From a virus, in IMG/VR virus record IMGVR_UViG_3300030329_004816, positions 1 to 47,240 of that record: DNA of 47,240 nt; one strand, written 5' to 3'. Position numbers and translations under genes: made by a program. Shown in pieces: positions 8,648 through 33,132 of this stretch. Within the stretch, counting starts at the first letter, position 1; each line of letters starts with the position of its first letter. The notes beneath the pieces are model-generated. The model was not told the origin of the DNA. It ran no database searches and saw nothing but the letters and a program-made list of their open reading frames with translations.

Positions 8648-8675
8648 TTTAGTAGTTTTTCCTTTCTTTTTTTTG

Positions 8676-9017
8676 TTAGCCTCCTATCTCGTTGAACTCA
8701 AGAGTGAACTCAATCCAATAAGGGCCGTTAAATTTGTTTTCTGAAACGTGAGCCGTTGCGTTACTTCCATCATCCCATGTCCCGATTGGGATGTAATCTG
8801 GGAAATCGTAAGTCGCTGAAAAATTTCTCCCGGTAATTTCCTTGAGGCGGTAGGCCAAGAACCAAAGCATTTTTTTGGAGGCTCTAATTGAAACAGTCCG
8901 TCTCCCAGTTTCACCATCGTCATTTTTTATTTTGAACGATGACCCCTCTTTCCGGTCGAGAAGTAATTTCCTAGCTTCCGGAGACATAGTTAATTTGTGT
9001 TTGGCTTCTTCTTTCAA
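8676..9017 (-). CDS. Hypothetical protein, TTG start
   Basis: 113 aa. The apparent start codon is TTG at 9017, preceded by GAAAGGAAATAAA at ideal spacing; the next in-frame ATG is at residue 11 (MSPEARKLLL) and lacks such a site. The product has an N-terminal helical part (SPEARKLLLDRKEGSSFKI), then RTVSIRASKKMLWFLAYRLKEITG, and a C-terminal beta part. No family recognised. It sits 1 bp after the stop of the hydrolase-like gene, so it is probably co-transcribed with it. Confidence 0.65.
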   Translation of the reverse strand: MKEEAKHKLTMSPEARKLLLDRKEGSSFKIKNDDGETGRRTVSIRASKKMLWFLAYRLKEITGRNFSATYDFPDYIPIGTWDDGSNATAHVSENKFNGPYWIEFTLEFNEIGG

Positions 9018-9501: not shown

Positions 9502-9529
9502 ATTATATACAGGGTTTGAAAGGTGTCAA
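9502..9529 (-). promoter_or_regulatory. Consensus sigma-70 promoter for the leftward module
   Basis: On the minus strand TTGACA (9529-9524) is followed after 16 nt by TATAAT (9507-9502), both perfect consensus hexamers. The ATG of the hydrolase-like gene is at 9492-9490, 9 nt past the -10, so the expected transcription start falls 0-3 nt before the start codon. The strength suggests early or constitutive host-polymerase expression. Confidence 0.8.
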
Positions 9530-16143: not shown

Positions 16144-19100
16144 ATGGCTCAAAGGAAATTTGGCCGCAAGGTCGAAAATGTAGGAAGACCGGGGCTTAAT
16201 CCCGGAAGAAATAACCTTGAAAGGGATGAGGCTCCCCCAGCTACCGATATAGATCCGGGCATAGCCCAAAAGCCTATTATATCGAGACCAGAGAACATAG
16301 ATCCGGGCATAGTTCATGGAGCAAGACCTAATCCTATGGTCGATGAAATTATTAATCGAACCAGAAAAGAAGCTATTGATGATTCTGCTCCTGTTGGACA
16401 GGAGCCATCGATCCGTCCTAGGATATTTGATCCAAGGAAAATCCAGCACAAACAGTTAAAGGATATTAATAAAGACCTAATCACGAGGCTCAATATAGAA
16501 GACCGAGAGGCCAATCGTAGACAGGAAGCACTTCAGAGGGAAAGCAGAACGAGAAGAGAGAAGGCATCTAAGGCACTTCAGGAACAACTGGAAGAACAAA
16601 GGGCAGAAGATTACTTTCAAGCAGAAAGAAGATTGGATCGAGAAGGCATTCAGTATGATAAGGATCGGCAAGGAAGACCAATCGTCAGGCGTGATAAAGA
16701 GGGGAAACCAACATACACCAAAAAGACAGGTGATATTGAAATTGACGAGAAGACAGGTCGGGCTTTCCGAATGGACAGAGATTCAAAGGGTAACCTTAAA
16801 CGAGTCGATGTTGATAAAGATGCAAAAGTTGGCCCTGATGCCACGAGAGATGACGGATTCATTTATCGCCAGAATAAATATACCGATTGGGAGCAAATCG
16901 ACCCGGAGGAAGGTCGATTCAGTTCTGATAGGAAAGTTGCTGTAGCATCTGCTAAGTATTTATACGAAAAGGAAAAGGAACGCATTGAAAGGCTGATAGA
17001 TGATCCTGTCCTCCCTCCAAAACTTACGAAAAGCGAAAAGAAGAAATACACTGAGGAGAGAGATAACATAAATAAATCTTTAGAAGATCTAGAGAAAAGT
17101 TTTAAAGATGGAGAAATCAAGGAAGAGGATTACAACGAATCTTTAACCTCTCTTCAAAATCAACTTCAAGAAGCGGAAGATAATTTAGGGGCAGGAGCAG
17201 AACGAGAAAAGCTGGAAAGGGAGCTATACGATCTTGAGGGTCGAGGGGCGGCGGCTTTTATGAAGCCGGGAGCCAAAAAGGAGGAGGGTGACCCGGCTAA
17301 AGAGGAGGCAGGGGAGTTAAAGACCCAAATTGAAACTTTTGAAAAAGAGCAGGAAGAATTTTCTCAGGGAATAGAAGCTGAGAAAGCAGAATTGGATGCG
17401 CTTCAAGACAAAGCGAAACAAGGAGGTTTAAGCGCAGAGGAGACTTTTGAGCTAACGGAGGAAATTAAAAGAAAAATAGCGGATGTAAATTCTCGCATTG
17501 AATCTGGCAACGAGAAATTATCTATTGATGCAGAAGATATTCGTAAAAGAAGTAAGGACTTAGCCTCAAGGCAAAAGTTGGCTTATCAAAAAGCTGTAAA
17601 AGAAAGAGACAAGCAACTTGATAGTCTAACGAACCCAATGACTTCAGATGTCATTGATGAGTTTCGTAAAGGGTTGGCTGAAATTGAAGCTAGGGAAAAG
17701 GCGTGGGCGGAGCTTCCCGGGGATCTTGATCGCCTCAAAAAGTTGGGGGCAGGAGCGAAAGCGGAAGACCACTACAAGAAACAGGTTAAGCACCAACTGG
17801 ATTTAGACAGGGAAAAATTAGCCGAACAATTTCAAGCAGGTCTCGAACAAACTGATGCACTGAAATCTGAAGCTGTTGAGGAAATAGAAAAGATACAGGC
17901 AGAAGTAAGCGAAGAGGTTGCATCTATCAGAATGCCTGTAGGCGGATCACGAGGCTTTGATCCAAATATATCTCAAAAAGTTCACGAAGAAAGAGAAGCA
18001 ATTTCAAATACTCTCCCCGAGAGAATTAGAAAATCCTTAACGGAAAAAGGCTTCAAACCTGACCAGATCGAGGCCGTAGTTGGAGATTTTGAAAAATCAA
18101 AAGACGTATTCAATGGAAAAGTGGATTCAGCCCTTTTGTCAGATGGAAGAATACAAGTCTCTCCTAGACTCATTTACAATTCTGATGACGAATTAAAAAA
18201 GACAATATCTCAAGCTGGTGGAACTAAAGAGCAACAGGATGCCGCCTTTTTAGAGGCCAGAAGAATGCAGGATCAAATGGGTGCGGAAATGGCCGAAACC
18301 ATTGGGAAAACCAAGTATGGGAAAGATTTTATCGAGTTCTCATCAAAGTTCATTGATGACTTTAAAAAGCAGAATCCACATTTCATAGACAAGGATGGGC
18401 AATACACAGAGGATAGCGAAGGGTTAAGGCCAACTCATGGCACTCTCATCAGGGCATTTAAGAATGCCAGAGGCGATTTATGGAATAATATTGCTTGGAA
18501 CGAATTTGGTAATTCATTGGGTCAAATCATGGCGTGGGTTCCTGCGATGATGGGATCTCAAAAGTATAAAGATGCAGGTGCTCAATTAAAAAAGGACAAC
18601 GAGGAACTTGCACAGCTTGGAGAGTTGATTGATAGCGAGGGATTTTTCCTTGGCTTTACCAAAAGAGAATTAATGGGCGGAGGATTATCTCTTGTTCCCT
18701 CGATGCTTCCCGGCATGGCGTTTGGGCGAGTAGCTACAGTTTTAGGGGCTGGAGGCAAAGCCGCAACTACAGCAGGTATGGTCGGCGCAACCGCAGGTGC
18801 TTTCGCTCAAAGTGGTGCTCCTACTTATTTTGATGCTCGTGAAGGATTTCAAACCAAGATTTACAACGAGTTACTTAAAGCCGAAGGGGTTGACGTTTCC
18901 GAAATATCGCCTGAAAGAATTTCAGAAATTGAAAAGGAATCGATAGAAAGAGCCGATTCACAAGCTCTTTGGGTTGGTTTAGCCACTGGTACTATCACTG
19001 CCGTTGTTATGGGAGTTTCGGCGAAACTTGTAGGGCCGAAAGGTGTTGAAGCAATCCTGAATAGAAATAAAGGAGGGATGGTTCCTGTCCGTCAGGTGGT

Positions 19101-22100
19101 TCGTGAATTATCTAAAAAGGGATTAAAGAAGGCATTAAAGAGTAAAGAATTTTATGCGTCCATTGGGAAAATGGCCGCAGACTTTGGAATTAATGTGAGC
19201 GAGGAATTTGCAGAGGAATTTTCCGATCAATTATTTAATGGCATCCTTGAAGCAAATACATTTAACCCTGATAAATCCTTTTCTGAAATACTTGCCGAGT
19301 CATGGAAAGCAGGAGTAATGGGGGCAGTTTTAGCTGGTGGCATGTCGGGGGCAGGAAGTGTTAAGAATGGGTCTTCAGAAGGCTGGAGTCAGTGGAGGAA
19401 GTCTATTAAAGACAAGAAGTCTTCGCTTGATAATATAAGTGATATTCCCTCGACTGAAGATCCTGTTGATAACCTTGCTCCGCAGGAGCAGTTAGTTTCA
19501 GCAGAACTTGAAATTGATAACTGGACACCCCCAGAAGGGGCGAACCCAGCGAGTATCGATTTAGACAAGAGGATGGCAAAGGCGGCAGGGCGCATCGCTG
19601 TTGGTGACATTGATTCTGTATCTGAGGCGGATTTAAACCTTTTAAATTTACAGAGAAATAAAGCAGGGGAAGTAGAGTCTGCGAAAGCTGACGGAGATCC
19701 CTGGGCAACTGCGGAAAATGGAGTCCCAATTCTAGGGCAAACATTAATTGATAGCCTGAGTCAAAGGCATCCAACATTAGCAAAACTACTGCCTAAAGAC
19801 GAAGCATCTCAGCGACAGTCGGCAAGACCTGTTGAGGAACAGAAACAAGCGGAGCAACCAAAGGCATCAGAGCCTTCTGAAACAAAGACACCAGAAGAAC
19901 AGGAGCAGGTTGGAGGAACTTTTGAAGTTCCAGTTTATGGAAAGGAAGAGCCTGTTCAGGTTGATGCTCTTGATGAGGAAGAAGCCGGAAGGAAAGTCGC
20001 TGAAATGGGGGTAGGAATGGTGGACTTTGGTGGCATCATCCAAACTGGCGTTGCTAAGACTCCAAGCCCTAAACCGCCAAGCCCTGAGACTGAGGAGATT
20101 GTATCTTCGGCTATTTCCCAGATCGAACAAGAAAAAGGAAGGGAACTTACTGCGGCGGAAAAAGCAGGAGTTAAAAAAGCGGCTTCTTTAGTTTCTAAGC
20201 AAATTGAAAAATGGGGTAAGATTTTTAAAGGCGTAGGCTGGACTCTTGAATCTATAGGGTCAGGGGGGATGTACACTAAAGATGGTAACTTAAATTTCTC
20301 AGTTCCAGATCTTTTAAGGAATCTCGCTTCAGAAAATATTGATTCGAAAACATGGGCGGAAAAAGCAGGTCTTGAGGAAGCGATTCACCTTGTCGCTTTT
20401 CAATTACACAAAGAAGGAAAAATTGATATCCGCAAACTATGGAAAGATTTACCAAAAGAAATCCAAGATGCAGTCAGAAAAACTTACCCAATTGAAAAAA
20501 AGGAACTTCAGAGATTAAGCGAAGAAATAAACGTACCAGTTGGAGAAATAGAAGCTGAACAGTTGGGAAATGAATTTCTTCGGATGATTGTTCAAGGCAG
20601 AATGGCTGTCAAAGATGGCCTTTGGGAGCTTGATGGGAGCGTAGTTTCAACTGAACAGGCTTCAAAAACACTGATACAATCAATCAGAAAGGCTTTTCAG
20701 GAGATTCTTGATTTCTTTAACGGAGTAATGGACTCGGATGAGGAGTTTGCCGTTGAAATCAGAAAGGCGGCAGAACTGATTGAACAAAGACTTAATGAAT
20801 TGACGGCTAAAACTGAGGAAAAGCCCAAGCCCAAGCCCAAAAAGGTGGCTAAAAAGAAAGTTGCTCAAAAAGAAGCACCGACTAGAGGGCCGCCTACCGG
20901 AAGAGTAGAAGGATCTACTGCACAAGTTATTAACGCAGGGAGAACTGTTAATGTTCGGTATGAGGTCAGATCTGCTTCAGATTCTAAACCATCACATGAC
21001 GCTTTAGGCAGAAAAACCGAGGGATACCCACAGGAATTACAGCCAAGGGATCGTTCGACAAAGGAGTACAGGCAACAGGCTAGAAATATCGCTAACAATC
21101 TTGATTTTGATAAGGCTGTATTTTTTCCGGGAACTGATACACCAGCGACTACAGCAGATATTGGAGCACCTATAATTACTCAAGAGGGAGCGATGGGAGA
21201 AGGAAGCCCATCATTTACTCTTATAGGTAATGGAAGGGATATAGGAGCAATAGAAAGTTACAGACTGGATACTCCTGCGTCTAAGGACTACAAACAAAAG
21301 CTCATTGATAATGCTGACAAGTTCGGACTCGACCCCGAGGCAGTATCCAAAATTAAAGACCCTGTATTATACAGAGTAATTACTGATAACTTATCAACAC
21401 CAGAACTAATAAGGTTTTCACAGGAAAGTAATGAGGGTGAAGCAATGGCTTCTAATGCTGTCGAGTTAGCAGGTCAAGATGCTCAAAGACTTACTCCTCA
21501 AATTCTTTATGCCTTAGATCCAGAGTTTGCAATAGACAGTAAAAAGAATCAAAAGTTTCTAACCCTTTACACTCAGAAAGTAATTGGTGCTCGTTCTGCA
21601 AATGAAGCAAACATAACTAAAAGTGATTTAGCTAGAAGAGCTAAAATGGCAATTTTCACGGCGGCTTACGGCCTCGATGCTGAAGGCAGGGCCGCATTGG
21701 ATCGCATGTCTGGTGATTCAGGAGATGCGGCAAAGCGTTTAACTAACGCTTTAATAACTGTTTCCCCGATGGTTGCCCGAATGAGGCAAGATATAGAGGC
21801 AGGTGCATTAAATGATTTAGACATATCCAATGATATTGCTAAAGCAGTTCAAAAGATATCCAGTGCTATCAGAGACGCAAAAAATATTAGCACAGCATGG
21901 GAGAGCCTCGAGGGGCAAGGTGAATTTGATTTAGGAGGAAAGGGAGTTGAAGATTTAATTCTCGATTACTTAGTAACTAACAGGGGAAATAGAAGCTCAT
22001 TAGAAAATGCTATAGGTAACTATGTCGAATCTGTTTACAGAATTGGAGACCCCAGACAAGAGGACATGTTTGGCAAAAGAGCTTTCCCTTCTCGGGAGGA

Positions 22101-25100
22101 ACTTTGGAATATTGCCGCTCAAGATGTGGAAAAGCCTGTAGAGGAAACTCAAAAAGCCGCAAAACCACTAAACGTTGCCTTAAAATCACAGCAGTTATCC
22201 GAGAAAAATTCTTTACAGGAATCCATAGATAAACACAAGGAAGCAGGAATTAAAATTGAGCCGTTCGTGGATTCGGATGGCAGAACCTTTAAGTTTGCCG
22301 AGACTATACTAAAGGCAGTTCAAAAACTTCCGCCGGAGACAAGAGAGGAACTCTTCCGTCTTGCAGTTGAAAATCAAGAGATTGCCAGATCTGAAAAGAA
22401 CAAACTTCCCAAAGAGGTACTTGCTGAAATTGCTAATATTAACAAGAAAAAGATCGAGCAAAGAACTCTTAATAGAGAAGACTACAAAGATCAGTGGAAT
22501 GATCATATTAAGAAGTACGTTAATCCAGAAGAAGGAATTGATTACAATAAGGATTTAGAAACGGAGATTGATAGGTTAGCTCAAGAGAATGGTGCTATTC
22601 CGCTTATGGGGCCAATCAAAGGAGATCGAGCAATCGATAAGGCTATTGATAAGGCAGAGGAGAGAATGGAACATAAACTAAAAATCAATCCAAACTTTAA
22701 CGAAGTTATCGAACCAGACTTTAACGAATTAACTGACGTTATTAGAGGATCATTAATTGCTACCACAAATGCAGAGGTTGATCAGTTAGTAGACTCCGTG
22801 TACGAAAATCCAAACTGGACGGTAATTAAAAATTCAAAAGGCCCAGAAGGAAAGGCCGATAAAAAGGATCGAAAACTTCACAAAAACAGATTTAAAAATC
22901 CTGTCGGCGGATACAAAGATCACATGATCTTAGTTGAAATGGCTCCCGGGGTAATTGCTGAGATTCAAGTTCATCGTGCTGACACTATTTATGCTAAAGA
23001 GGTCGGGCCGGGGCATTTGTTTTACGAGACAACCAGACAAATCATTGAGAGCAAAGTTCACAAAAGGAGTGCGCTAGGCTATAAAGGCACTCGAGTTACT
23101 CGCACTGCGAATAAAAAGTTTAAAGAAATCTCTAGGATATCAAAAGATTACTACACTAATTCGAGCAATATTTATGAAGATCAATTAGGAGACAAATATG
23201 ACCCTAATTTGAAAACTCAACGAGCCGCCGCATCGAGTTCAGCAGAAATGCGAAGAGCTTCCTCCTCGGTGATTTCTTCTGCACCAGAAAGTACAGTTTC
23301 GGTTATCCGAGCACGGCGGTCATCGTCTACAGGCTTAGATGCTCCAGCTATTCTAAGAAAACCCGGGCCTACCTCCCAAGGTATACCTGTTTCAGATAGA
23401 ACAAATGATGTTGTTACTTCCGGCATTACGCCTATTAATACATCAATTCCGCTAAAAGCGCAAGACTTAGATCTATTTAATGACTATGCAAAAACCCTAC
23501 CAGCTAGGACAAAAGCGTCAAAACCAGTATTTAAAAGGAAGGTGGCAAAAGATCTACCAGCCGCCTCGGGAAAGGATATTGATAATTTATTCGATTGGTT
23601 TAATGTGCCTGTAAATGAAGACGTTAGAGGAGATGCCGAAACAGGAACTCAGGGAGCACCCGATTTGGGAGAAGGTTTGGGACAATCTGAGCGAGGAGAA
23701 CCCTCGATTCCTGCTCAACAGTCTAGAGACAGTGGATCAAAGAGCGAAGATGATGATCAGAGCGACCAAGGGAGGGGTAGAGTGGACGAGCGCATCCCAA
23801 CAGATACTCCCGGAGAATCTGGAAGAGCAGAAGCCACTGACAGAGAAGGAACAGAAACAATTCCAGAAGATGAGCGACCTAGTGGAGAAGATGCTAGAAG
23901 AGAGGGACGAGAAGAGTCACCAAGAGTTCTTGAAAGGCCAGAAGTAGATTCCCCTGAAAGGAATCATACAATCGAGAGCCAAGAGGATCTAAATCCTTCG
24001 GGAGTCAAGGCTAGGATCAAAGCAAATGTTAAGGCGTTAAAACTTTTAAGAACGCTTGAAAAAGAGGACAGGAATCCAACTCCAGAGGAAAAATCTGCAT
24101 TAGCTAAGTTTTCAGGATGGGGAGCGGTTCCACAAGTCTTCGATAGAATTAAACTTCAAGAATCTCAGGATCTTGAAAGTTATCAAAGGGACTATGATAG
24201 GAATATAGAGACAGCTAATAAATCAAGTTCCTATATGAAGGATGTCTATCTTGAAGAAGCTCAGAAAGCTAAAGAAAAAATAGATAGATTAGGTAAGTGG
24301 GAAAAGAAATTCGGCAAAGAGGCAAGAGCTTTAAAAGAGCTTTTAACTGAGGATGAATGGGAGACGGCGGCGGCTTCAATCACTAATGCTCATTTTACAA
24401 GCATTGATGTAATTAAAGGAATGTGGGATGCTGTTGAAAGAATGGGTTTCAAAGGTGGGGTTGCTCTGGAACCTGCGGCTGGAGTTGGTCATTTCTTCGG
24501 AGCGATGCCTGACAAACTGTCTGACAGGACTTCAACAGTTGGAGTCGAGTTGGATTCAATATCAGGGCGTATTTTTTCTAAACTATACCCAGAAACAAAT
24601 GTATTTGTTCAAGGTTATCAAGATGCCCCAATAGAACCCGGGGCGGCTGATCTTGTTATCTCAAATGTTCCTTTTGAGAACACGTTTACTGTCGATGATA
24701 AATCATTGGGTAAAACTCCAAAGTTTAACCTTCATAATTACTTTTTCGCCAAAGCCCTTCAATCGGCGAAACCGGGAGGAATTGTTGCATTTATAACAAC
24801 TCATTTCACTATGGATGCTTCAGCAGATCAAAGAAGATGGTTGGCAAAGCATGGAGATTTAGTGGGAGCTATAAGGCTTCCCAATACGGCATTTAAGAAA
24901 AACGCAGGTACAGAGGTAACTACAGATATTATTTTCCTCAGAAAACCAGATGGTAAAAAATTCGAAGGAGAATCATGGAGCGAAGTTTCTGAGCAAAAAT
25001 TCCCTAAAGGGGGGCCAGTAAATGTAAACGAGTACTTTATTAAAAACCCTCAAATGATACTAGGCCGACTCAGTAATGATGGGTCAATGTTTGCTACTGA

Positions 25101-28100
25101 AGAAAAAGGAGAACTTACGGTTCATCCAACAGGGGATCTAGGAAGGCAACTATCTGAAGCAGTTAACAGGCTCCCATCTAATATTTTCGGAGAAGGATCT
25201 AGAACAGGAAAAATAGGAGAAGCAAAAAAAGAATCCAAGCGGAAGCAAGGGTCGATCTATTTGGATGGTAAATCAATTAAGGTGGAAGGTGTTTCTAAAG
25301 CGAAGTTACCAAAAAGGCCAGTAGTTGAATCTTTCATTCAAGTTAGAGATTCTCTTAATAATTTATTGGAAGCCGAAAAAGATCCTAATTCGACTGAGGA
25401 AAATATCACTTCAATACGAAATGATTTAAACAGGCTTTACGACTTACACGTTAAAAAGCATAAGAATTTCCACACAAGGGCATCTAAAGGTCTTTCCGTT
25501 GACCCAGATTACTATCGAGTCCTAGGACTTGAGCTTCAGCAGGAGGACGGCTCATTTAAAAAGGCATCCATCTTTAATGAAAGGGTGATGCGCCCTGTAG
25601 AAGAGCCTACAAGTGCCGACTCACAGGAAGATGCTCTTGCTCACTCACTGTCGTGGAAGGGGCTGGTAGACATCGATTACATGGCTCAACTTCTAGGGCA
25701 ACCTAAAGAAAAGATTTTAGATGAATTTGTAGGAAGCGGCCTTGGTTTTATAAATCCTGATAATGGATTGCCTGAGATCAGAAATCACTATCTCTCAGGG
25801 AACGTAAGGGAAAAGCTATTACAAGCAAAAGAAGCGGCTAAAACTTCAGAGAAGTTTGAAAGCAATGTAGAGGCATTAGAGGCAATTCAGCCAAAAGATT
25901 TAAAATACGAAGAAATATCATATTACCTTGGGTCAGCTTGGATACCCGGGGAGGTTATAGAGGATTTCGCACAAAACAGAATGAACTTAACTATGTCAGT
26001 TAATTATATGAGAACCGACACAGTTAATGAGATGGTTACTGAAAAGTGGGATGTTCAATCAACTGCTAGATGGTCACAGAGTAATGCTGAATTTGACCCA
26101 GGTGTTCCGAGATACAATGCTCAAAAAATATTAGAAAGTGTATTAAATTTAAGAACTCCAATAGTTAGAAAGAATGTAGGGACATCAGAAGACCCTCAAA
26201 TGGTTATAGATGAGAAAGCTACAGCCAACGTTAAGGCCGCCCAAGAAAGGATGAAGTTAGCTTTTAAAGACTGGATTGATGAAAATGAAGGCGCACAGAA
26301 CGCATTAACCGCTAACTATAACGAAAATTTCAATAACTATGTGGAGCCGACATATAACGGTCAACACATGGTGTTGCCTTGGATTAATCCCAAGTTTGAT
26401 TTATTCCCTGCCAAGAAAGACGTTGTATTTAGAGCTATACAAGATCGTAGAGGATTAATTGCTCATGGTGTTGGTGGAGGTAAAACAGTTATTGCTACAG
26501 CCATAGCAATGGAAATGAAAAGGCTTGGATTGGCTAACAAGCCATTGATTGCCGTACACAATGCAACTCTTGAACAATTCTCTGAAACTGTCAGAGAAAT
26601 GGCTCCAGATGCCAACATCCTAGTTGCTAGGAGATCAGATCTTGCAGGTGCAAAAAGAAAAGAGTTTTATGGGAAAATAGCATCAGGCGATTGGGATATG
26701 ATTATTATGGCTCAATCTACATTGGATCGGATACCTGATGATCCTGCTTACGAAAGAAAAATTCTTAATGAGGTAAAAGATCAGTTTATAACTTCCCTTC
26801 AACAAATTGCGATTGATGAAGGCAAGGACACACCAACTGTTAAGGAATTACAGAAAAGAATTAAGAGTATTAATGCTAAAATTGCTAAATTACAAAAAAG
26901 GAAAGTTGATGATATTTTAACTTTCCAAGAAATGGGCATCGATGCTCTTATCTTAGATGAGGCTCACTTATATAAGAAGCTCCCTTATGCTACAAAGCTA
27001 GGTAATCAAATAGCAGGTATAGATCGAGGGGCATCGCAAAGGGGAACATCTTTCTTAACCAAGTCACGGTACATTCAAGAAAACCAGAATGGTAAAAACA
27101 TATTTACCATGACAGGAACACCAGTAACTAACACTCTTGGTGAGACTTGGAATATGATAAGAATGGTTGCGCCTGATTTATTGTCTGATTTTAACGTCAG
27201 CACATTTGATTCATTTGCTACCACTTTTACCGAGATTGAAACTAGAGATGAACTGAGACCTAATGGAAGGTTCAAAAGAATACAAAGACTATCCAAAATA
27301 AGTAATATCCCGGAATGGAATAGGCTGTTTAGGCAAGTGGCTGACGTTAAACTTGGAGAAAAAATGGACGTAAAGAATCGTCCTGAGATCGAAGGTGGAG
27401 AGGCATTGCTTAAAGTGGTTCCTCAAACGGAAGGTGTTAATCAGTTTACTGAATATATCTTCAAGGTGATTGATAAATTTGATAATTTGGAAGGTAAGCA
27501 GAAAAGAGAATTTTCATACATCCCACTTGTTTCGTTTGGTGCGGCTAGAGCGGCGGCAATAGACATGAGAATGGTTGATCCTAATGCAAAGGACGAGCCG
27601 GGGAGTAAACTCAACAAAATGATCGACAGTGCAATCGATCTGTATAAAAAGCACGACAGCCAAAAAGCAACGCAGGTTGTTTTTGCAGACACATTTAGAG
27701 CAGTTAAAAGAGTAAAGCTCGAGGAGTTTCTTGAGGGTAACGTAATCGAGAGAGATATAACTGAGTCAGATGTAGAGGAAGAGGTTTCTTTTGAGGACAA
27801 TGAATTTAATCTTTATCAGGAGATTAAGAACAAACTAGCATCAAAAGGTGTACCAGAAGAGGAAATAGCAGACATCCAAGATTACAAAACTCCAGAATCT
27901 AGGCAAAAACTTTTTGATAAAGTGAATAATGGAGAAGTCCGGTTTGTTTTGGGGAGCACTCAAAAACTAGGCACAGGAGTTAATATGCAAGAGCGGATGA
28001 TTGCCGCTCATCACTTAGATGTTCCTTGGACACCTGCGGATCTCGAGCAAAGAGATGGTAGAGTTTATCGCCAAGGGAATATTTTTTCAGAGCTAAATGT

Positions 28101-31100
28101 GCCTATTCATCTGAATAGATACGGAATGCAGGAATCCCTAGATGCCGCTTTGTGGGATAAGATAGAATTTAAAGAGAGGTTTATCCGTCAAGCTATGAGC
28201 GGTGAAATGAACGCTCGTGTTATTGAGGAGGATGAAGGGCTACTTAGTCTCGCAGAACAAAAAGCTATTCTTATGGGAGCGGATGGCCTTCGCTTTTTCC
28301 AAGTCAGTCAAGAGATCGAGGCATTAGTTAGAGAGCGGAAAGCTCACGATTCATTAAGGGAAAGATCAGTTAACAATCTATCTGAATCAAAGACCAAACT
28401 TGAATTTGCTAAAGCCTTTAATGAAAAGATGACCACTGCAATGGGCAATCTTGAAAACAAGTGGGATGAAGACATGGAATTTGGCATTGAGCTAAATAAC
28501 ATTAAATATGAAGACACTAAAAAGGGAATTAAGGCTTTAGATAGGGTTTTCAAAGCTCACAACAAATCGATAAATAACAAAAGATTTAAAACACTTAGCG
28601 AGTTAAACAATGACAAAAAGCTAAGAGAGCCTCTTGCCAGTGTGACCGTTGATGGGGTCGAGGTTGAATTGAGTCACAGCGTGTTCAGAGAGAATTTAAG
28701 TGGAAAAAATCAATATCGCTCTGAGTTCATTCCGATAATTAAGATGCCTGACGGCTTAACTGTTAATTTGGAAAAAGTTACTTCAGCCGACACTTTTGAG
28801 AAAAGAATTAGAGCCGCCAAGGAAAAAATCAATATTAAGAACATTGGAGCGGAGCGAACAGTGGCTAGGGAGACTGAAAACATTCCTACATATACAGAAC
28901 TCGCAGAAAGGCCATTTCCTCGTGAAAAGGAATTACAGGACATGGTTACCGAATACAGAGAGATCGGGCCTAAGTTTGATGCTGATATGGGAATTGTCGA
29001 TTCTATAGATCCTTTAAGTGAAGAGGAGACTTCAATTCCGTTAAAATCTCAGAACCTTGATACCGATACTGCCCTCCCCTCCCATGATTTAGGAGGAAAA
29101 AAACCTTCTAGAGAAAAAATGGCTGACGCAATGATAGCGGCTAATCAAATGTTGCCTAGGGATCGTAGTCGTAAACAATTTGCTTACGAATACCGAAATG
29201 CAATGCCTAATCAAAAGTGGTTAACTGCATACGAGTTAGGGAACAGGTTATTCAGAGGAAGTGCTGAAGGAAAAGCAGCTTCTCAATCAATCCTTAATCG
29301 GTGGGTTGAGTCTGGCCTTGTGGACAGGATGTGGACTGAAGATGGTACACCTATTTATGCTTGGTCTGGAACGAAGCCGGAAAAAGGACTTTTAACCATG
29401 GATCAAATCAATAAAAAGTATCCAGAAGACGCACCACAATTTGAAAGGTTCGATGCAACTACACCTAATATTCTAAAATCTCAGAACCTTGATCCAGAGA
29501 CAGACGCTAGATACGACTTTGAGAATGTTCTTGATGAATTAACACTTCCTCCTGAGACTCTTAATATTTATTCGGGGGGTAGACTATTAGGGCGAAGAGG
29601 CGAAGATGTAGTTCGCAAGGCTCTTTTATACAAGGGCGAGAAAAGTCCACCTAAAATAAAAGAAGCAATTTTGGACGGAGGAGAGTCCTCAAATGTTTCA
29701 GAATCTATATATCCAGTGATTCTGGTTGAATTGGAAAATGGGGCAGAGTTCCGCAAAATCATTAGAATTTCAAGACATGATCAACTGTCCTCTCGTTCTC
29801 CAAGAGGATACGACTTGGATTATAGAGGCAAGAATTGGACAGAGGTTAAAAGCGATGTGCTTATAGACTTGCAAAACCTCGCTGACGATATTTGGGAAGA
29901 ACAAAAGAAAACCATTACTGGAGAAGTTGTTCCGGCAGAAGAGATAAGCCGAGAGAATGAAAAGAATAGGCAAGAGCGCATAGGCTACATTTCACGCCAA
30001 ATAGATAATCTTGAAAAGATAGGCATTCCTGCCCGAAGAAGGAAAGGCCATCTAGATAAGGTGCAGGAGTTTGAGGAAAGAGTTGCCAAGCTAAAAGAAG
30101 AACTTGTAAGCCTCGGCACTCAAACTACCAGTAATATTCTAAAATCTCAGAACCTTGCTGAAATCACAGGCGATACCGAAATCGATGTAGAACTTAAAAA
30201 GCTATACCAAGAGGCTCTTAACGAGCAATCCGGTGAACGCACTATAGGAAACCCTGAATTAGCTATAGGAGCGGAAGACCCTGCAATAATGTCTGTCGAT
30301 GAATATCGCAAGACGGCTGTAGGGGCTGAAACTTTTGAGCAGTGGAATGCTGAAGCCAAGGTAATGGTAGAAAACGATTACGAAGGAACAGCAGAAAGAA
30401 TTAAACAGCTTGGATTTGAAGGAGGGACTCTCGACCCTGTATTGACAAGAGCGGCGCAAATGATTGTTGCTCAAGAAATGTCGATGCCCATGACGAAGGA
30501 AAGAAGGGAAAATGTTCAAAAATTAGTCTGGGCATACAGGGCAACTGGAACAGAACAGGCCAGAGGACTGGCCTCGAGGAGAGACCCATTTAAAACACCT
30601 GAAGAAAGGCACAAGGAATTTCTTGGCAAGGTAATCTTCACGCCTCCGGCAAAGGTCAGGAAGAAGGTTGAAAAGGCAAGGACGCAGGAAGAGAAACAAA
30701 AGATTCTCGATAAAGATGCTATCCGGATTCAGAAGATTGAAAAAGAACTCGCAAGAATGGGAGTCACCTTTGATGACATTTTTAGAGGGGAAGTCGAGCT
30801 AACTCTTAAAGGATCGAAGATAAAAACAAATATCACAGAAGGATATTCTGCAAAACAAAAAATGGTTATCAAACTATTTAGTAGTGGTAAGACCTTAAAG
30901 CAAATTGCCAAAATGGTTGAATTGACTGTTAGCGAGGTAAAGCAGGTTCGGAATGCCTTTAAAGAGGAATTTGTACGGAGGCATTCGGATAAAGTCAGGC
31001 AAGGAGTAAAAGCAGAGGATCTGAGCGTTGACGATGAAACACTTATCCTTAAATCAAGTCCCTTGGATTTAAGCGAAGCTGAAGTTGATGCTGAAATTGA

Positions 31101-33132
31101 AAGAATGCTTCTTAAAATGGGTATCCCTCCATTAAACAAAATAGGCAAAATGAAAACTCGCAAGAGAAAGCCTAAAAAGAAAATGTTTAGACCTCCTGCT
31201 CCAAGCGGTGCTGAACAGGATGCCAAATGGGATGAGTTTAAAGACAGAGACTTTGAACCTGATTCTACTGATTATGTTCAAGAAGTCATGGTTGGAGTGG
31301 ATCTTTACGACCCTGTTGAAGTAGTTAAGATTGCGAGAGCGGCACAATCGGCTGATAGCAATGGGTGGAGTATGCTCCACGAATACTGGATCAACAATAT
31401 CCTTTCCGGCCCTCAAACGCATGTAGTTAACGTGACAGGAAATGTTGCTAATGCCGCATGGGATTTCACTGTTCAAAGAGGCATGGAGGCCATGCTTAAT
31501 ACAATTTTCAAGTCTGAAAAAGGAGCCACATTTAAAGAATATCGCCACATCATAAAAGGAATAATGCCTGGAGTGGCAAGGGGGATGAGATTAGCCCTGA
31601 AATCGTGGGGTGCTGAAACTGATTTCTTTAGAGCGGAAGTCCTTAATGAGCAGATCGATTTGAATGATGGATATATTAAAGGGGAGGGACATAAATCCTC
31701 TGTTCGTGGGAAAAAAGGAAAAGTCATCAGAATCCCCGGCAGGGCATTGTTATTTGCTGATACTTTCTTCAAAGGTCTCTTTGGAACTATGGAGGCAGGG
31801 GCGCAGGGGTACAGAATATCTAAAGCTCAAGGACTCAAAGGAAAAGAACTTGAGAAGAAAATTGCAGAATATGTAAACACTCCCAATAGTCAGGCTTGGC
31901 AGATCGCCGTTGATAAGGCTACAGATCTCACCTTCCAGACTCCTTTGAGATCAAGAGAAGAAGGAGGCAACTGGGCTGAAGCCGCAGTCCACTGGATATC
32001 AATGGGATCAAGGTCAGTTCCTCTTCTTAATTGGGTGATTCCTTTTGCAAGGACACCATTTAATATTTTTAAACAGGGAATGAGAAAGTCTCCACTTGGG
32101 ACAATTAATTTTGCATCGCACTTCCTCCGGAACGGTCTTTTCCGAAGGGAAAAAGGACAAACTGTCATCGATGCTTACCCTGAATTAATAAGAGATGCCG
32201 CAGAGCAGGTCTTGGCATGGACAGCTTACGCTGTCTTGCATGGAGCGGTTGAAGGAGATGATGATGACGATGAAAAGTTTTTCCTGATTACAGGATCAAG
32301 GCCTCCAAGATCGGGAGAAGCTGGAGTAAGGCAAAGAGATACAGGAGGAGATTATGTTATAAAAATTGGGGATCTCAAAATTCCGTATGGCCGAGTAGAG
32401 CCATTTTCAACAATCTTAGGAACAACGGCTGACTTAATTAGAGCCACGAAATCAAAAGCCACATCAGAAAGAGTTTATGGACAGTTGTGGGGATGGATGC
32501 TGGGTCAGGCCAGAAATAAAACCTTTATGCGTGGGCTAGGTGACGTTGCTAAAGCAATAGAAAAGCCGGAATCAGCTAGTTCATATACAAGTAGGTTTGT
32601 TAAAAATGCCATCGTACCAAACCTTATTCGACAGCCGATAAGGAATGTCGATAAGTATGATCGTGAATGGCGAAGCAAAGAATGGTGGTATGACATCCTG
32701 CCTTTACCATCGGGGGCTGAAAAGAAAGTTGATCCAGCAACAGGAAGATATGTTGAACGTGCTGGAACTGCGGCAACTAGACTGGTAATACCCAAAATTG
32801 AAAAGACTCAGAAGTTGGTTCAATCTGATAAATTTTTAGTTAATTGGAACCGAGAGAACCCTGCTCAAACTTGGGGGCCAACTACGCCTAGCAACAGCCT
32901 CAATATGCTCGATGGAAAAGGTCATATAAAACTGGGGCCGAACAGTTATAAATACCTCGTCAAAAGGTCAGCAACTCTTGCTCAAGGGCTGTTGGATGGT
33001 AAATTATCCCCATTCGACATTAAAGAACCTCGAGAGCGTAAACTGAACGAAATCCAGACAGCTTACAGAAAAGGGCGTGAACAGGCCAGAGATGAGCTTA
33101 GATCAAGACCAGAAATTTTGCTGAAGAAGTAA
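16144..33132 (+). CDS. Giant polyvalent protein (5662 aa), probably ejected with the DNA
   Basis: A single open frame of 16,989 nt. Order of parts by residue: 1-700 disordered and coiled coil; 840-1075 membrane-like Gly/Ala segments; about 1360-1560 degenerate metallopeptidase-like region with EEAIH (1411-1415) in place of HExxH; 1600-1995 DdrB-type ParB domain; 2150-2310 RelA/SpoT-like nucleotidyltransferase; 2340-2610 Ser-rich then acidic linkers; 2620-4060 DarB-like adenine methyltransferase plus helicase; 4060-4290 coiled coil; 4310-4430 winged-helix-like; 4451-4662 unknown domain; 4900-4945 sigma region 4-like helix-turn-helix; 5040-5662 the C-terminal domain with NNILSGPQTHVVN. LKSQNL-type linkers recur between parts. 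Polyvalent proteins of this type (P1 DarB/DdrB are known relatives) travel in the capsid and protect incoming DNA from restriction. It sits directly before the portal gene, consistent with a virion protein. No frameshift or stop interrupts it. Confidence 0.93.
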   Translation: MAQRKFGRKVENVGRPGLNPGRNNLERDEAPPATDIDPGIAQKPIISRPENIDPGIVHGARPNPMVDEIINRTRKEAIDDSAPVGQEPSIRPRIFDPRKIQHKQLKDINKDLITRLNIEDREANRRQEALQRESRTRREKASKALQEQLEEQRAEDYFQAERRLDREGIQYDKDRQGRPIVRRDKEGKPTYTKKTGDIEIDEKTGRAFRMDRDSKGNLKRVDVDKDAKVGPDATRDDGFIYRQNKYTDWEQIDPEEGRFSSDRKVAVASAKYLYEKEKERIERLIDDPVLPPKLTKSEKKKYTEERDNINKSLEDLEKSFKDGEIKEEDYNESLTSLQNQLQEAEDNLGAGAEREKLERELYDLEGRGAAAFMKPGAKKEEGDPAKEEAGELKTQIETFEKEQEEFSQGIEAEKAELDALQDKAKQGGLSAEETFELTEEIKRKIADVNSRIESGNEKLSIDAEDIRKRSKDLASRQKLAYQKAVKERDKQLDSLTNPMTSDVIDEFRKGLAEIEAREKAWAELPGDLDRLKKLGAGAKAEDHYKKQVKHQLDLDREKLAEQFQAGLEQTDALKSEAVEEIEKIQAEVSEEVASIRMPVGGSRGFDPNISQKVHEEREAISNTLPERIRKSLTEKGFKPDQIEAVVGDFEKSKDVFNGKVDSALLSDGRIQVSPRLIYNSDDELKKTISQAGGTKEQQDAAFLEARRMQDQMGAEMAETIGKTKYGKDFIEFSSKFIDDFKKQNPHFIDKDGQYTEDSEGLRPTHGTLIRAFKNARGDLWNNIAWNEFGNSLGQIMAWVPAMMGSQKYKDAGAQLKKDNEELAQLGELIDSEGFFLGFTKRELMGGGLSLVPSMLPGMAFGRVATVLGAGGKAATTAGMVGATAGAFAQSGAPTYFDAREGFQTKIYNELLKAEGVDVSEISPERISEIEKESIERADSQALWVGLATGTITAVVMGVSAKLVGPKGVEAILNRNKGGMVPVRQVVRELSKKGLKKALKSKEFYASIGKMAADFGINVSEEFAEEFSDQLFNGILEANTFNPDKSFSEILAESWKAGVMGAVLAGGMSGAGSVKNGSSEGWSQWRKSIKDKKSSLDNISDIPSTEDPVDNLAPQEQLVSAELEIDNWTPPEGANPASIDLDKRMAKAAGRIAVGDIDSVSEADLNLLNLQRNKAGEVESAKADGDPWATAENGVPILGQTLIDSLSQRHPTLAKLLPKDEASQRQSARPVEEQKQAEQPKASEPSETKTPEEQEQVGGTFEVPVYGKEEPVQVDALDEEEAGRKVAEMGVGMVDFGGIIQTGVAKTPSPKPPSPETEEIVSSAISQIEQEKGRELTAAEKAGVKKAASLVSKQIEKWGKIFKGVGWTLESIGSGGMYTKDGNLNFSVPDLLRNLASENIDSKTWAEKAGLEEAIHLVAFQLHKEGKIDIRKLWKDLPKEIQDAVRKTYPIEKKELQRLSEEINVPVGEIEAEQLGNEFLRMIVQGRMAVKDGLWELDGSVVSTEQASKTLIQSIRKAFQEILDFFNGVMDSDEEFAVEIRKAAELIEQRLNELTAKTEEKPKPKPKKVAKKKVAQKEAPTRGPPTGRVEGSTAQVINAGRTVNVRYEVRSASDSKPSHDALGRKTEGYPQELQPRDRSTKEYRQQARNIANNLDFDKAVFFPGTDTPATTADIGAPIITQEGAMGEGSPSFTLIGNGRDIGAIESYRLDTPASKDYKQKLIDNADKFGLDPEAVSKIKDPVLYRVITDNLSTPELIRFSQESNEGEAMASNAVELAGQDAQRLTPQILYALDPEFAIDSKKNQKFLTLYTQKVIGARSANEANITKSDLARRAKMAIFTAAYGLDAEGRAALDRMSGDSGDAAKRLTNALITVSPMVARMRQDIEAGALNDLDISNDIAKAVQKISSAIRDAKNISTAWESLEGQGEFDLGGKGVEDLILDYLVTNRGNRSSLENAIGNYVESVYRIGDPRQEDMFGKRAFPSREELWNIAAQDVEKPVEETQKAAKPLNVALKSQQLSEKNSLQESIDKHKEAGIKIEPFVDSDGRTFKFAETILKAVQKLPPETREELFRLAVENQEIARSEKNKLPKEVLAEIANINKKKIEQRTLNREDYKDQWNDHIKKYVNPEEGIDYNKDLETEIDRLAQENGAIPLMGPIKGDRAIDKAIDKAEERMEHKLKINPNFNEVIEPDFNELTDVIRGSLIATTNAEVDQLVDSVYENPNWTVIKNSKGPEGKADKKDRKLHKNRFKNPVGGYKDHMILVEMAPGVIAEIQVHRADTIYAKEVGPGHLFYETTRQIIESKVHKRSALGYKGTRVTRTANKKFKEISRISKDYYTNSSNIYEDQLGDKYDPNLKTQRAAASSSAEMRRASSSVISSAPESTVSVIRARRSSSTGLDAPAILRKPGPTSQGIPVSDRTNDVVTSGITPINTSIPLKAQDLDLFNDYAKTLPARTKASKPVFKRKVAKDLPAASGKDIDNLFDWFNVPVNEDVRGDAETGTQGAPDLGEGLGQSERGEPSIPAQQSRDSGSKSEDDDQSDQGRGRVDERIPTDTPGESGRAEATDREGTETIPEDERPSGEDARREGREESPRVLERPEVDSPERNHTIESQEDLNPSGVKARIKANVKALKLLRTLEKEDRNPTPEEKSALAKFSGWGAVPQVFDRIKLQESQDLESYQRDYDRNIETANKSSSYMKDVYLEEAQKAKEKIDRLGKWEKKFGKEARALKELLTEDEWETAAASITNAHFTSIDVIKGMWDAVERMGFKGGVALEPAAGVGHFFGAMPDKLSDRTSTVGVELDSISGRIFSKLYPETNVFVQGYQDAPIEPGAADLVISNVPFENTFTVDDKSLGKTPKFNLHNYFFAKALQSAKPGGIVAFITTHFTMDASADQRRWLAKHGDLVGAIRLPNTAFKKNAGTEVTTDIIFLRKPDGKKFEGESWSEVSEQKFPKGGPVNVNEYFIKNPQMILGRLSNDGSMFATEEKGELTVHPTGDLGRQLSEAVNRLPSNIFGEGSRTGKIGEAKKESKRKQGSIYLDGKSIKVEGVSKAKLPKRPVVESFIQVRDSLNNLLEAEKDPNSTEENITSIRNDLNRLYDLHVKKHKNFHTRASKGLSVDPDYYRVLGLELQQEDGSFKKASIFNERVMRPVEEPTSADSQEDALAHSLSWKGLVDIDYMAQLLGQPKEKILDEFVGSGLGFINPDNGLPEIRNHYLSGNVREKLLQAKEAAKTSEKFESNVEALEAIQPKDLKYEEISYYLGSAWIPGEVIEDFAQNRMNLTMSVNYMRTDTVNEMVTEKWDVQSTARWSQSNAEFDPGVPRYNAQKILESVLNLRTPIVRKNVGTSEDPQMVIDEKATANVKAAQERMKLAFKDWIDENEGAQNALTANYNENFNNYVEPTYNGQHMVLPWINPKFDLFPAKKDVVFRAIQDRRGLIAHGVGGGKTVIATAIAMEMKRLGLANKPLIAVHNATLEQFSETVREMAPDANILVARRSDLAGAKRKEFYGKIASGDWDMIIMAQSTLDRIPDDPAYERKILNEVKDQFITSLQQIAIDEGKDTPTVKELQKRIKSINAKIAKLQKRKVDDILTFQEMGIDALILDEAHLYKKLPYATKLGNQIAGIDRGASQRGTSFLTKSRYIQENQNGKNIFTMTGTPVTNTLGETWNMIRMVAPDLLSDFNVSTFDSFATTFTEIETRDELRPNGRFKRIQRLSKISNIPEWNRLFRQVADVKLGEKMDVKNRPEIEGGEALLKVVPQTEGVNQFTEYIFKVIDKFDNLEGKQKREFSYIPLVSFGAARAAAIDMRMVDPNAKDEPGSKLNKMIDSAIDLYKKHDSQKATQVVFADTFRAVKRVKLEEFLEGNVIERDITESDVEEEVSFEDNEFNLYQEIKNKLASKGVPEEEIADIQDYKTPESRQKLFDKVNNGEVRFVLGSTQKLGTGVNMQERMIAAHHLDVPWTPADLEQRDGRVYRQGNIFSELNVPIHLNRYGMQESLDAALWDKIEFKERFIRQAMSGEMNARVIEEDEGLLSLAEQKAILMGADGLRFFQVSQEIEALVRERKAHDSLRERSVNNLSESKTKLEFAKAFNEKMTTAMGNLENKWDEDMEFGIELNNIKYEDTKKGIKALDRVFKAHNKSINNKRFKTLSELNNDKKLREPLASVTVDGVEVELSHSVFRENLSGKNQYRSEFIPIIKMPDGLTVNLEKVTSADTFEKRIRAAKEKINIKNIGAERTVARETENIPTYTELAERPFPREKELQDMVTEYREIGPKFDADMGIVDSIDPLSEEETSIPLKSQNLDTDTALPSHDLGGKKPSREKMADAMIAANQMLPRDRSRKQFAYEYRNAMPNQKWLTAYELGNRLFRGSAEGKAASQSILNRWVESGLVDRMWTEDGTPIYAWSGTKPEKGLLTMDQINKKYPEDAPQFERFDATTPNILKSQNLDPETDARYDFENVLDELTLPPETLNIYSGGRLLGRRGEDVVRKALLYKGEKSPPKIKEAILDGGESSNVSESIYPVILVELENGAEFRKIIRISRHDQLSSRSPRGYDLDYRGKNWTEVKSDVLIDLQNLADDIWEEQKKTITGEVVPAEEISRENEKNRQERIGYISRQIDNLEKIGIPARRRKGHLDKVQEFEERVAKLKEELVSLGTQTTSNILKSQNLAEITGDTEIDVELKKLYQEALNEQSGERTIGNPELAIGAEDPAIMSVDEYRKTAVGAETFEQWNAEAKVMVENDYEGTAERIKQLGFEGGTLDPVLTRAAQMIVAQEMSMPMTKERRENVQKLVWAYRATGTEQARGLASRRDPFKTPEERHKEFLGKVIFTPPAKVRKKVEKARTQEEKQKILDKDAIRIQKIEKELARMGVTFDDIFRGEVELTLKGSKIKTNITEGYSAKQKMVIKLFSSGKTLKQIAKMVELTVSEVKQVRNAFKEEFVRRHSDKVRQGVKAEDLSVDDETLILKSSPLDLSEAEVDAEIERMLLKMGIPPLNKIGKMKTRKRKPKKKMFRPPAPSGAEQDAKWDEFKDRDFEPDSTDYVQEVMVGVDLYDPVEVVKIARAAQSADSNGWSMLHEYWINNILSGPQTHVVNVTGNVANAAWDFTVQRGMEAMLNTIFKSEKGATFKEYRHIIKGIMPGVARGMRLALKSWGAETDFFRAEVLNEQIDLNDGYIKGEGHKSSVRGKKGKVIRIPGRALLFADTFFKGLFGTMEAGAQGYRISKAQGLKGKELEKKIAEYVNTPNSQAWQIAVDKATDLTFQTPLRSREEGGNWAEAAVHWISMGSRSVPLLNWVIPFARTPFNIFKQGMRKSPLGTINFASHFLRNGLFRREKGQTVIDAYPELIRDAAEQVLAWTAYAVLHGAVEGDDDDDEKFFLITGSRPPRSGEAGVRQRDTGGDYVIKIGDLKIPYGRVEPFSTILGTTADLIRATKSKATSERVYGQLWGWMLGQARNKTFMRGLGDVAKAIEKPESASSYTSRFVKNAIVPNLIRQPIRNVDKYDREWRSKEWWYDILPLPSGAEKKVDPATGRYVERAGTAATRLVIPKIEKTQKLVQSDKFLVNWNRENPAQTWGPTTPSNSLNMLDGKGHIKLGPNSYKYLVKRSATLAQGLLDGKLSPFDIKEPRERKLNEIQTAYRKGREQARDELRSRPEILLKK
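20926..22128 (+). other. DdrB-type ParB-superfamily domain within the giant protein
   Basis: Residues about 1595-1995 carry NVRYEVRSASDSKPSHDALG, then GYPQELQPRDRS, an IGAPIIT segment and LIGNGRDIGAIESY. This is the recognisable order of the ParB-like domain of phage P1 DdrB and related polyvalent proteins (SH, YPQELQPRDR, GAPI, GNGR). A helical part follows, ending near PRQEDMFGKRAFPSREELWN. The family is predicted to be nuclease-like and is linked to protection of incoming DNA; activity here is not demonstrated. Confidence 0.82.
22591..23073 (+). other. RelA/SpoT-like nucleotidyltransferase domain within the giant protein
   Basis: Residues about 2150-2310. A helical lead-in (DKAIDKAEERMEHKL) is followed by ELTDVIRGSLIA with D2198 in the metal-binding position. 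RFKNPVGGYKDHM carries Y2257 in the GY motif, VIAEIQVH has E2273 in the EIQ motif, and KEVGPGHLFYE occupies the place of the conserved AExGHWxYK block. This is the order of the (p)ppGpp synthetase fold. The lead-in lacks a clear copy of the Arg/Lys ATP-binding helix, so the nucleotide donor is uncertain. It may make alarmones, pyrophosphorylate another target such as tRNA, or be inactive. Confidence 0.72.
24001..28323 (+). other. DarB-like adenine methyltransferase-helicase region within the giant protein
   Basis: Residues 2620-4060. The N-terminal block VKARIKANVKALKLLRTLE and KFSGWGAVPQVFD is characteristic of DarB-like proteins. The methyltransferase has EPAAGVG (2776-2782) for AdoMet binding and SNVPFEN (2840-2846) as the catalytic NPPF-type motif. 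The helicase has Walker A GVGGGKT (3442-3448), DEAH (3605-3608), TMTGTPVTNT and the motif VI block QRDGRVYRQG (3969-3978). P1 DarB protects the incoming genome from type I restriction in cis, and the same role is likely here. Confidence 0.9.
29042..30157 (+). repeat. Dispersed in-frame DNA repeat encoding LKSQNL linkers (outer limits)
   Basis: The 18-mer TAAAATCTCAGAACCTTG occurs three times in the giant gene: 29042-29059, 29474-29491 and 30140-30157. The last two copies are identical over 26 nt (29466-29491 and 30132-30157). All are in the same frame and encode LKSQNL. Related peptides without close DNA identity are ALKSQQL (residue 2013), PLKAQDL (2437) and ILKSSPL (4968). The copies bracket compact domains, including a winged-helix-like domain and an unknown domain. 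Confidence 0.9.

What the first reader, a model, noticed from the sequence alone, without database searches (positions are those of the whole stretch)
22591..23073. RelA/SpoT-like synthetase domain inside the giant, probably ejected protein, paired with a stand-alone alarmone hydrolase in the same phage
Seen: residues 2150-2310 have the RelA/SpoT order with D2198, Y2257 and E2273 in the catalytic and substrate-stacking positions. The gene at 9019-9492 keeps every catalytic residue of small alarmone hydrolases (H36, H56-D57, E60-D61, D124). Known: toxic small alarmone synthetases (FaRel-type toxSAS) can be neutralised by small alarmone hydrolases, and phages encode such hydrolases. Inference: the phage may inject an alarmone-making or tRNA-pyrophosphorylating activity with its DNA and use the early hydrolase to limit it, or to erase host (p)ppGpp. 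I know of no described phage system delivering a synthetase domain by ejection with its own antidote.
Basis: partly seen in the sequence, partly recalled or inferred. Interest (0 to 1): 0.88.

Follow-up and report, generated by a model that had tools for sequence, protein, structure and literature searches.

The report
Alarmone-synthetase domain in phage giant protein
A bacterial virus carries, inside a giant protein that is probably injected with its DNA, a real domain of the enzyme family that makes bacterial stress-signal nucleotides, and also a separate enzyme that destroys such signals; both kinds of part are known from other phages, but this combination seems undescribed and its purpose is untested.

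Summary
Residues 2150-2310 of the 5662-aa protein (16144-33132) are a RelA/SpoT-type synthetase (SYNTH) domain. A profile built without the window finds it at 56 bits (300 shuffles gave at most 10.6). The predicted fold matches only alarmone synthetases among the 50 listed PDB hits. K2159, D2198, R2201, Y2257, E2273 and Q2275 are conserved down to characterised Apk2 toxins. It lies on the toxSAS/exported-synthetase side, not with long RelA/SpoT. The nearest characterised relatives are RelV/VpEAS, which make only (p)ppGpp, then Tas1/Apk1, which makes (p)ppApp. The product cannot be assigned. The giant looks virion-internal: a DarB-like methylase-helicase core, an internal-virion-protein match near the C-terminus, and a place beside the portal gene. 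Related phages keep its ends but lack this domain. The hydrolase (9019-9492, minus) has an intact HD site and groups with Aph1, but carries an RSH-like Arg where Aph1 has Asp. It follows the only perfect sigma-70 promoter in the window. The claimed novelty is reduced: RelA/SpoT domains in phage polyvalent proteins, and MuF-Apk2 with its Aph1 antidote, are published. The new points are the carrier, the internal position and the unlinked hydrolase. That the two act as a pair is inference.

The parts
16144..33132 (+). Giant polyvalent protein, 5662 aa, immediately upstream of the portal gene
   Evidence: ORF; DarB-like antirestriction PHROG 10089 (E 1e-186 and 5e-213), PHROG 6651 internal virion protein (E 2.4e-9); ddrB-ParB, SNF2, Helicase_C
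22591..23073 (+). RSH-type synthetase (SYNTH) domain, residues 2150-2310; the modelled unit with flanking helices is 22411-23193
   Evidence: independent profile 56 bits, E 3.5e-17; AF2 and Foldseek; conserved K2159, D2198, R2201, Y2257, E2273, Q2275, K2285, H2291, R2298
20935..21381 (+). ddrB-like ParB domain, about residues 1598-1746 of the giant
   Evidence: Pfam PF18763 E 1e-17
24295..28989 (+). DarB-like methyltransferase-SNF2 helicase core of the giant
   Evidence: PHROG 10089, PF00176, PF00271
30231..32688 (+). C-terminal region of the giant conserved in related phages (about residues 4700-5515)
   Evidence: tblastn to relatives E down to 3e-33; PHROG 6651 within it
33162..35267 (+). 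Portal protein gene
   Evidence: PHROG 1216 E 1e-10; 34% identical to the portal of L002
9019..9492 (-). Small alarmone hydrolase (HD domain), 157 aa
   Evidence: phmmer to 7smg (p)ppApp hydrolase E 1.4e-12; PHROG 990, PF01966; HD motifs
9502..9529 (-). Perfect consensus sigma-70 promoter TTGACA-16-TATAAT, 9 bases before the hydrolase ATG
   Evidence: only zero-mismatch site in 47 kb, 0.03 expected per strand
7847..9017 (-). Two further minus-strand ORFs downstream of the hydrolase (8676-9017, 7847-8647), function unknown; no detectable IapK-like immunity gene

Best explanation
The domain is a catalytically competent pyrophosphokinase of the toxSAS/exported-synthetase branch of the RelA/SpoT superfamily, carried as an exchangeable effector module in a DarB-type polyvalent protein that is packaged in the virion and ejected with the DNA. 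In the new host it transfers pyrophosphate from ATP to the 3' position of a purine nucleotide ((p)ppGpp more likely than (p)ppApp, or both), draining GTP or ATP and damping host growth and transcription at the start of infection. The phage also makes a small HD hydrolase from its own host-type promoter. It removes the product, so that phage synthesis can proceed and so that the giant can later be made in the producing cell without poisoning it. Shown here: domain identity, conserved catalytic set, location in a giant protein with virion-internal signatures, intact hydrolase, consensus promoter. Inferred: ejection, activity, product, and action as a pair.
For: Independent profile hit; fold match; invariant residues even with Apk2 included; membership on the toxSAS/EAS side of a 100/100 split from long RelA/SpoT. 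Same domain family recurs in head-associated proteins of unrelated phages: MuF-like minor head protein (L013), portal-adjacent protein in PHB04-like phages. In 3 of 4 large PHB04-like records a hydrolase gene lies nearby, two genes downstream in PHB04 itself. DarB-like and internal virion protein matches. Eleven contigs of the same phage group have neither the domain nor an HD_4 hydrolase, so both are accessory in this lineage. RelV/VpEAS, the nearest characterised kin, are toxic when in the cytoplasm (PMC12691689). Perfect promoter.
Against: No activity, virion content or expression data. The syn3 position that is His in RSH (GYxSxH) and Asn in Apk/RelV (GYxxxN) is Met here (GYKDHM), as in PHB04-like proteins, all uncharacterised. 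Domain and hydrolase genes are 6.6 kb apart on opposite strands, unlike the tight apk2-iapK-aph1 cluster. Many phages have such hydrolases with no known synthetase domain. The window's hydrolase is on the Aph1 side while PHB04's is on the Rel side, so the two pairings are not one inherited unit. Three other phages with the domain (L013, L014, L025 records) lack a detected hydrolase.
Confidence: 0.5

Rival explanations
1. The hydrolase is unrelated to the ejected domain. It is a moron-like gene with its own promoter that erases host (p)ppGpp or neutralises host toxSAS defences or (p)ppApp toxins.
For: Own perfect promoter, opposite strand, lower GC and reversed GC skew around 8-10 kb; small hydrolases are common in phages with no known synthetase (180 INPHARED records at E<=0.01); Pseudomonas phage Adele's hydrolase is read this way (PMC12846349).
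Against: Its closest annotated phage relatives by E-value are Streptococcus phage Aph1 genes, partners of an Apk2 synthetase; both genes are absent together in related phages.
Confidence: 0.38
2. The domain is degenerate or non-catalytic and serves as a structural or nucleotide-binding part of the giant.
For: Met at the syn3 His/Asn position; long branch (2.94 changes per column); 32-residue insertions relative to relatives.
Against: All residues invariant across the family and in Apk2 are kept, including the metal-binding D/E pair, R, Y and Q.
Confidence: 0.12
3. The domain pyrophosphorylates tRNA 3'-CCA ends, like FaRel2 or CapRel.
For: Fold is shared; CapRel structures are among the Foldseek hits.
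Against: CapRel ranks below small alarmone synthetases and Tas1 in the fold search, and sequence similarity is to RelV/EAS and Tas1. tRNA-specific toxSAS sequences were not aligned directly.
Confidence: 0.07

Closest known systems
RelA/SpoT domains in phage polyvalent proteins (Iyer et al. 2017, PMC5512222)
   Same: A RelA/SpoT-type NTase domain in a multidomain phage protein with ddrB-ParB and other effector domains, predicted to be delivered with DNA; that paper also covers DarB methylase-helicase dyads.
   Different: Its examples are (pro)phages of spirochaetes and epsilonproteobacteria; no partner hydrolase is mentioned in the text searched. Here the domain is next to a DarB-type core and a hydrolase is in the same phage.
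MuF-Apk2 / IapK / Aph1 (PMC12226406; loci in Streptococcus phages V22 and Javan119)
   Same: Phage head-associated protein with a C-terminal synthetase domain plus a product-cleaving small HD hydrolase; conserved K, D, R, Y, E, Q, K, H, R set.
   Different: No MuF domain, domain internal, hydrolase unlinked, no IapK found; syn motifs differ (DxxRGS / GYKDHM / EIQVH against RYT / GxN / QYH); Apk2-only profile scores 3.6 bits.
RelV / VpEAS exported alarmone synthetases (PMC12691689)
   Same: Closest characterised sequences (E 8.5e-14); share DxxR[AG][TS], GY[RK]D and E[VI]Q[LV]H.
   Different: RelV/VpEAS are stand-alone 257-269 aa proteins with a signal peptide and an Asn at the syn3 position where the window has Met.
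Tas1/Apk1 T6SS effector (PDB 6ox6)
   Same: Best PDB match of the family profile (E 7.6e-12); local identity EIQV..(x)5 IYAKE.
   Different: PAAR/T6SS delivery; window domain alone scores only 10.5 bits.
PHB04-like Bordetella phage portal-adjacent protein (ATI15652.1) with nearby hydrolase ATI15650.1
   Same: Same domain family (30-33% identity), virion-gene neighbourhood, hydrolase in the same phage.
   Different: Small 494-aa carrier; clustered genes; hydrolase of another subgroup.

Membership tests
RelA/SpoT superfamily synthetase (SYNTH) domain | Fold of the Pol-beta-like SYNTH domain | tested here: met
   Foldseek probability 1.00 to RSH synthetases, E 3e-6, low TM 0.3-0.4
RelA/SpoT superfamily synthetase (SYNTH) domain | Catalytic Asp and Glu, substrate-stacking Tyr, ATP-binding Arg/Gln | tested here: met
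   D2198, E2273, Y2257, R2201, Q2275 invariant with 17 relatives including Apk2
RelA/SpoT superfamily synthetase (SYNTH) domain | syn3 acceptor-base residue (His in RSH, Asn in Apk) | tested here: not met
   Met in GYKDHM; Met also in PHB04-like members
RelA/SpoT superfamily synthetase (SYNTH) domain | Pyrophosphokinase activity | not testable with these tools
   needs biochemistry
Apk2 (MuF polymorphic toxin) | N-terminal MuF domain with C-terminal toxin domain | tested here: not met
   no MuF hit in the giant; domain internal
Apk2 (MuF polymorphic toxin) | Adjacent iapK and aph1 genes | tested here: not met
   hydrolase 6.6 kb away on the other strand; no IapK-like ORF recognised
RelV/VpEAS exported synthetase | Stand-alone protein with Sec signal peptide | tested here: not met
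   internal domain of a giant protein
Phage polyvalent protein | Several effector domains in one protein, encoded with packaging/structural genes | tested here: met
   ddrB-ParB, SYNTH, MTase, SNF2 helicase beside the portal gene
Phage polyvalent protein | Packaged and ejected with DNA | not testable with these tools
   supported indirectly by the internal-virion-protein and DarB matches
Small alarmone hydrolase | HD-domain metal site and catalytic ED | tested here: met
   H36, H56-D57, E60-D61, D124
Aph1 (p)ppApp hydrolase | Sequence clustering with Aph1 | tested here: met
   best PDB match 7smg; tree split 96/94, placement inside unresolved
Aph1 (p)ppApp hydrolase | Asp-Lys in the HD1 loop, as in all Aph1-side members aligned here (not verified as the published signature) | tested here: not met
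   R27-R28-N-G, as in Rel-type hydrolases
toxSAS toxin-antitoxin module | Adjacent antitoxin gene with a stand-alone toxin | tested here: not met
   domain is internal to the giant; no adjacent antitoxin gene

The most novel reading that the evidence does not exclude
The phage ejects a (p)ppGpp- or (p)ppApp-making enzyme as part of a DarB-type giant protein, giving a brief alarmone pulse at entry, and ends the pulse with a hydrolase transcribed at once by host RNA polymerase from a perfect consensus promoter: a timed synthetase/hydrolase switch built into one virion and its first transcript.
Probability: 0.2. Interest if true: 0.8.

Novelty: new variant of a known kind. Interest (0 to 1): 0.55.

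Why it matters
It extends alarmone-synthetase cargo from MuF toxins to DarB-type giant internal proteins and shows the same domain family in three kinds of head-associated phage protein. That makes a testable case for phages resetting host nucleotide signalling at the moment of entry, and shows that the domain is missed by Pfam, PHROGs, NCBIfam and PADLOC.

Tried and rejected
Single-protein searches of viral contigs, plasmids, Pfam, PHROGs, NCBIfam, PADLOC and the PDB for the domain gave nothing relevant; only tblastn against phages gave the PHB04 lead. First thought that the family is Apk/(p)ppApp-type, because Tas1 was the best PDB match of the profile; weakened when a search of 398 Pseudomonadota genomes and group profiles put RelV/VpEAS closer. 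The Rfam tools were not needed. A trimmed structure model was worse (pLDDT 62) than the one with flanking helices (72), so the first was used. An IapK-like gene beside the hydrolase was looked for by eye and not found. One Fisher-type count (hydrolase in 4 of 8 records with the domain including the window, 0 of 11 related contigs without it; 70/3876 = 0.018) is not independent evidence, since the records are related and several contigs are partial.

Full report
Observation. The ORF at 16144-33132 (+) encodes 5662 residues, and 22591-23073 is residues 2150-2310. A tblastn search of phages gave a weak lead to Bordetella phage PHB04 (E 5e-3). That protein recovered close relatives, and then a wider family, from viral contigs and one bacterial genome. 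A profile of 15 such relatives, without the window, hits the giant at residues 2088-2340 with 56.3 bits, E 3.5e-17, while 300 shuffled giants reach at most 10.6 bits. Five of 8 members of a family alignment match Pfam RelA_SpoT. The AlphaFold2 model (pLDDT 72) matches RSH synthetases, and nothing else, among its 50 listed PDB hits; the low TM-scores mean the model supports the fold but not atomic detail. The active-site geometry itself was not measured.

Catalytic set. With two Apk2 domains from Streptococcus phages added, the invariant columns include K2159, D2198, R2201, Y2257, E2273, Q2275, K2285, H2291 and R2298. The syn2 motif D-V-I-R-G-S follows the Apk/RelV layout (D-x-x-R-x-T/S), not the long-RSH layout (D-x-R-A-x-R). 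The syn4 motif EIQVH resembles Apk2/RelV (ending in H) and not RSH (EIQIR). The syn3 motif GYKDHM has Met where RSH has His and Apk/RelV have Asn (motif definitions from PMC12226406).

Which subfamily. Scored against subgroup profiles, the window domain gives 46 bits for two other phage proteins (L014, L025), 41 for PHB04-like proteins, 38 for signal-peptide-bearing 257-269 aa synthetases, 10.5 for Tas1, 3.6 for Apk2 and -0.6 for long RelA/SpoT. RelV and VpEAS make (p)ppGpp only and are toxic in the cytoplasm (PMC12691689). A tree separates this whole side from long RelA/SpoT (100/100) but leaves the window on a long unresolved branch. The product therefore cannot be assigned; (p)ppGpp is somewhat favoured.

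Carrier. The giant has a ddrB-ParB domain, a DarB-like methylase-helicase core (PHROG 10089, E 1e-186 and 5e-213) and a match to an internal virion protein family in its C-terminal part (PHROG 6651, E 2.4e-9). It lies next to the portal gene. P1 DarB is a virion head component (PMC5512222). Contigs of related phages found through the major capsid protein have giants of up to about 5000 residues with the same C-terminal region and parts of the N-terminal region, but a different middle, and neither this domain nor an HD_4 hydrolase. The domain is thus an accessory module in an otherwise conserved, probably ejected, protein. In other phages the same family sits in a MuF-like minor head protein (L013) and in a portal-adjacent protein (PHB04-like).

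Hydrolase. The 157-aa ORF at 9019-9492 (-) keeps all HD catalytic residues. Its best PDB match is the (p)ppApp hydrolase 7smg (E 1.4e-12), and its best annotated phage matches are hydrolase genes that sit in the order portal, MuF protein, small gene, hydrolase, as in published apk2-iapK-aph1 loci. A small tree places it on the Aph1 side (96/94), with PHB04's hydrolase on the Rel side. Its HD1 loop is R-R-N-G as in Rel, not D-K-A-G as in Aph1, so specificity is open. It is preceded by TTGACA-16-TATAAT, the only perfect consensus promoter in the window (0.03 expected per strand), 9 bases before the ATG, which would leave a very short leader or none. This supports transcription by host RNA polymerase; timing is not shown.

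Mechanism. Most likely the giant brings a pyrophosphokinase into the cell and the hydrolase removes its product, either in the infected cell or while the giant is being made. Domain identity, intact residues, gene context and promoter are shown; ejection, activity, product and pairing are inferred. The main rival is that the hydrolase is an independent anti-host or anti-defence gene. Such hydrolases are frequent in phages (180 records at E<=0.01), and one published phage hydrolase is read in that way (PMC12846349).

Comparison with the known. RelA/SpoT domains in phage polyvalent proteins (PMC5512222) and MuF-Apk2 with its Aph1 antidote (PMC12226406) are published, so the idea of a phage-delivered synthetase with its own antidote is not new. 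Here the carrier is a DarB-type giant, the domain is internal, the hydrolase is unlinked and no IapK is found. It fails the membership tests for Apk2, RelV/EAS and toxSAS modules, but meets those for the SYNTH superfamily (except syn3) and for polyvalent proteins.

Verdict. Observation confirmed; interpretation partly supported; a new variant of a known kind; interest 0.55.

Noticed in passing
window 9502-9529, minus: Only perfect TTGACA-16-TATAAT promoter in 47 kb, so close to the hydrolase ATG that the transcript would be nearly leaderless.
   Followed up: partly
window 7847-9017, minus: Two ORFs of unknown function follow the hydrolase in a minus-strand cassette within a plus-strand region; GC and GC skew shift there, as in a moron.
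   Followed up: partly
window 20364-20378 (giant residue about 1407): EEAIHLVAF resembles a zincin helix but lacks the first His of HExxH; the related giant in L002 has EELIHFVA at the matching place.
   Followed up: no
window 43611-44612, minus: A separate DNA methyltransferase gene (PHROG 67, E 8e-69) in addition to the DarB-like methylase domain in the giant.
   Followed up: no
L001 7020-9285 (Bordetella phage PHB04): Portal, synthetase-domain protein, 69-aa ORF and hydrolase in the same order as apk2-iapK-aph1 loci, though the carrier protein shows no PHROG match; an unannotated analogue of the Apk2 system.
   Followed up: partly
L013 5406-8507: MuF-like minor head protein (PHROG 16619) with a C-terminal domain of the same synthetase family.
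   Followed up: partly
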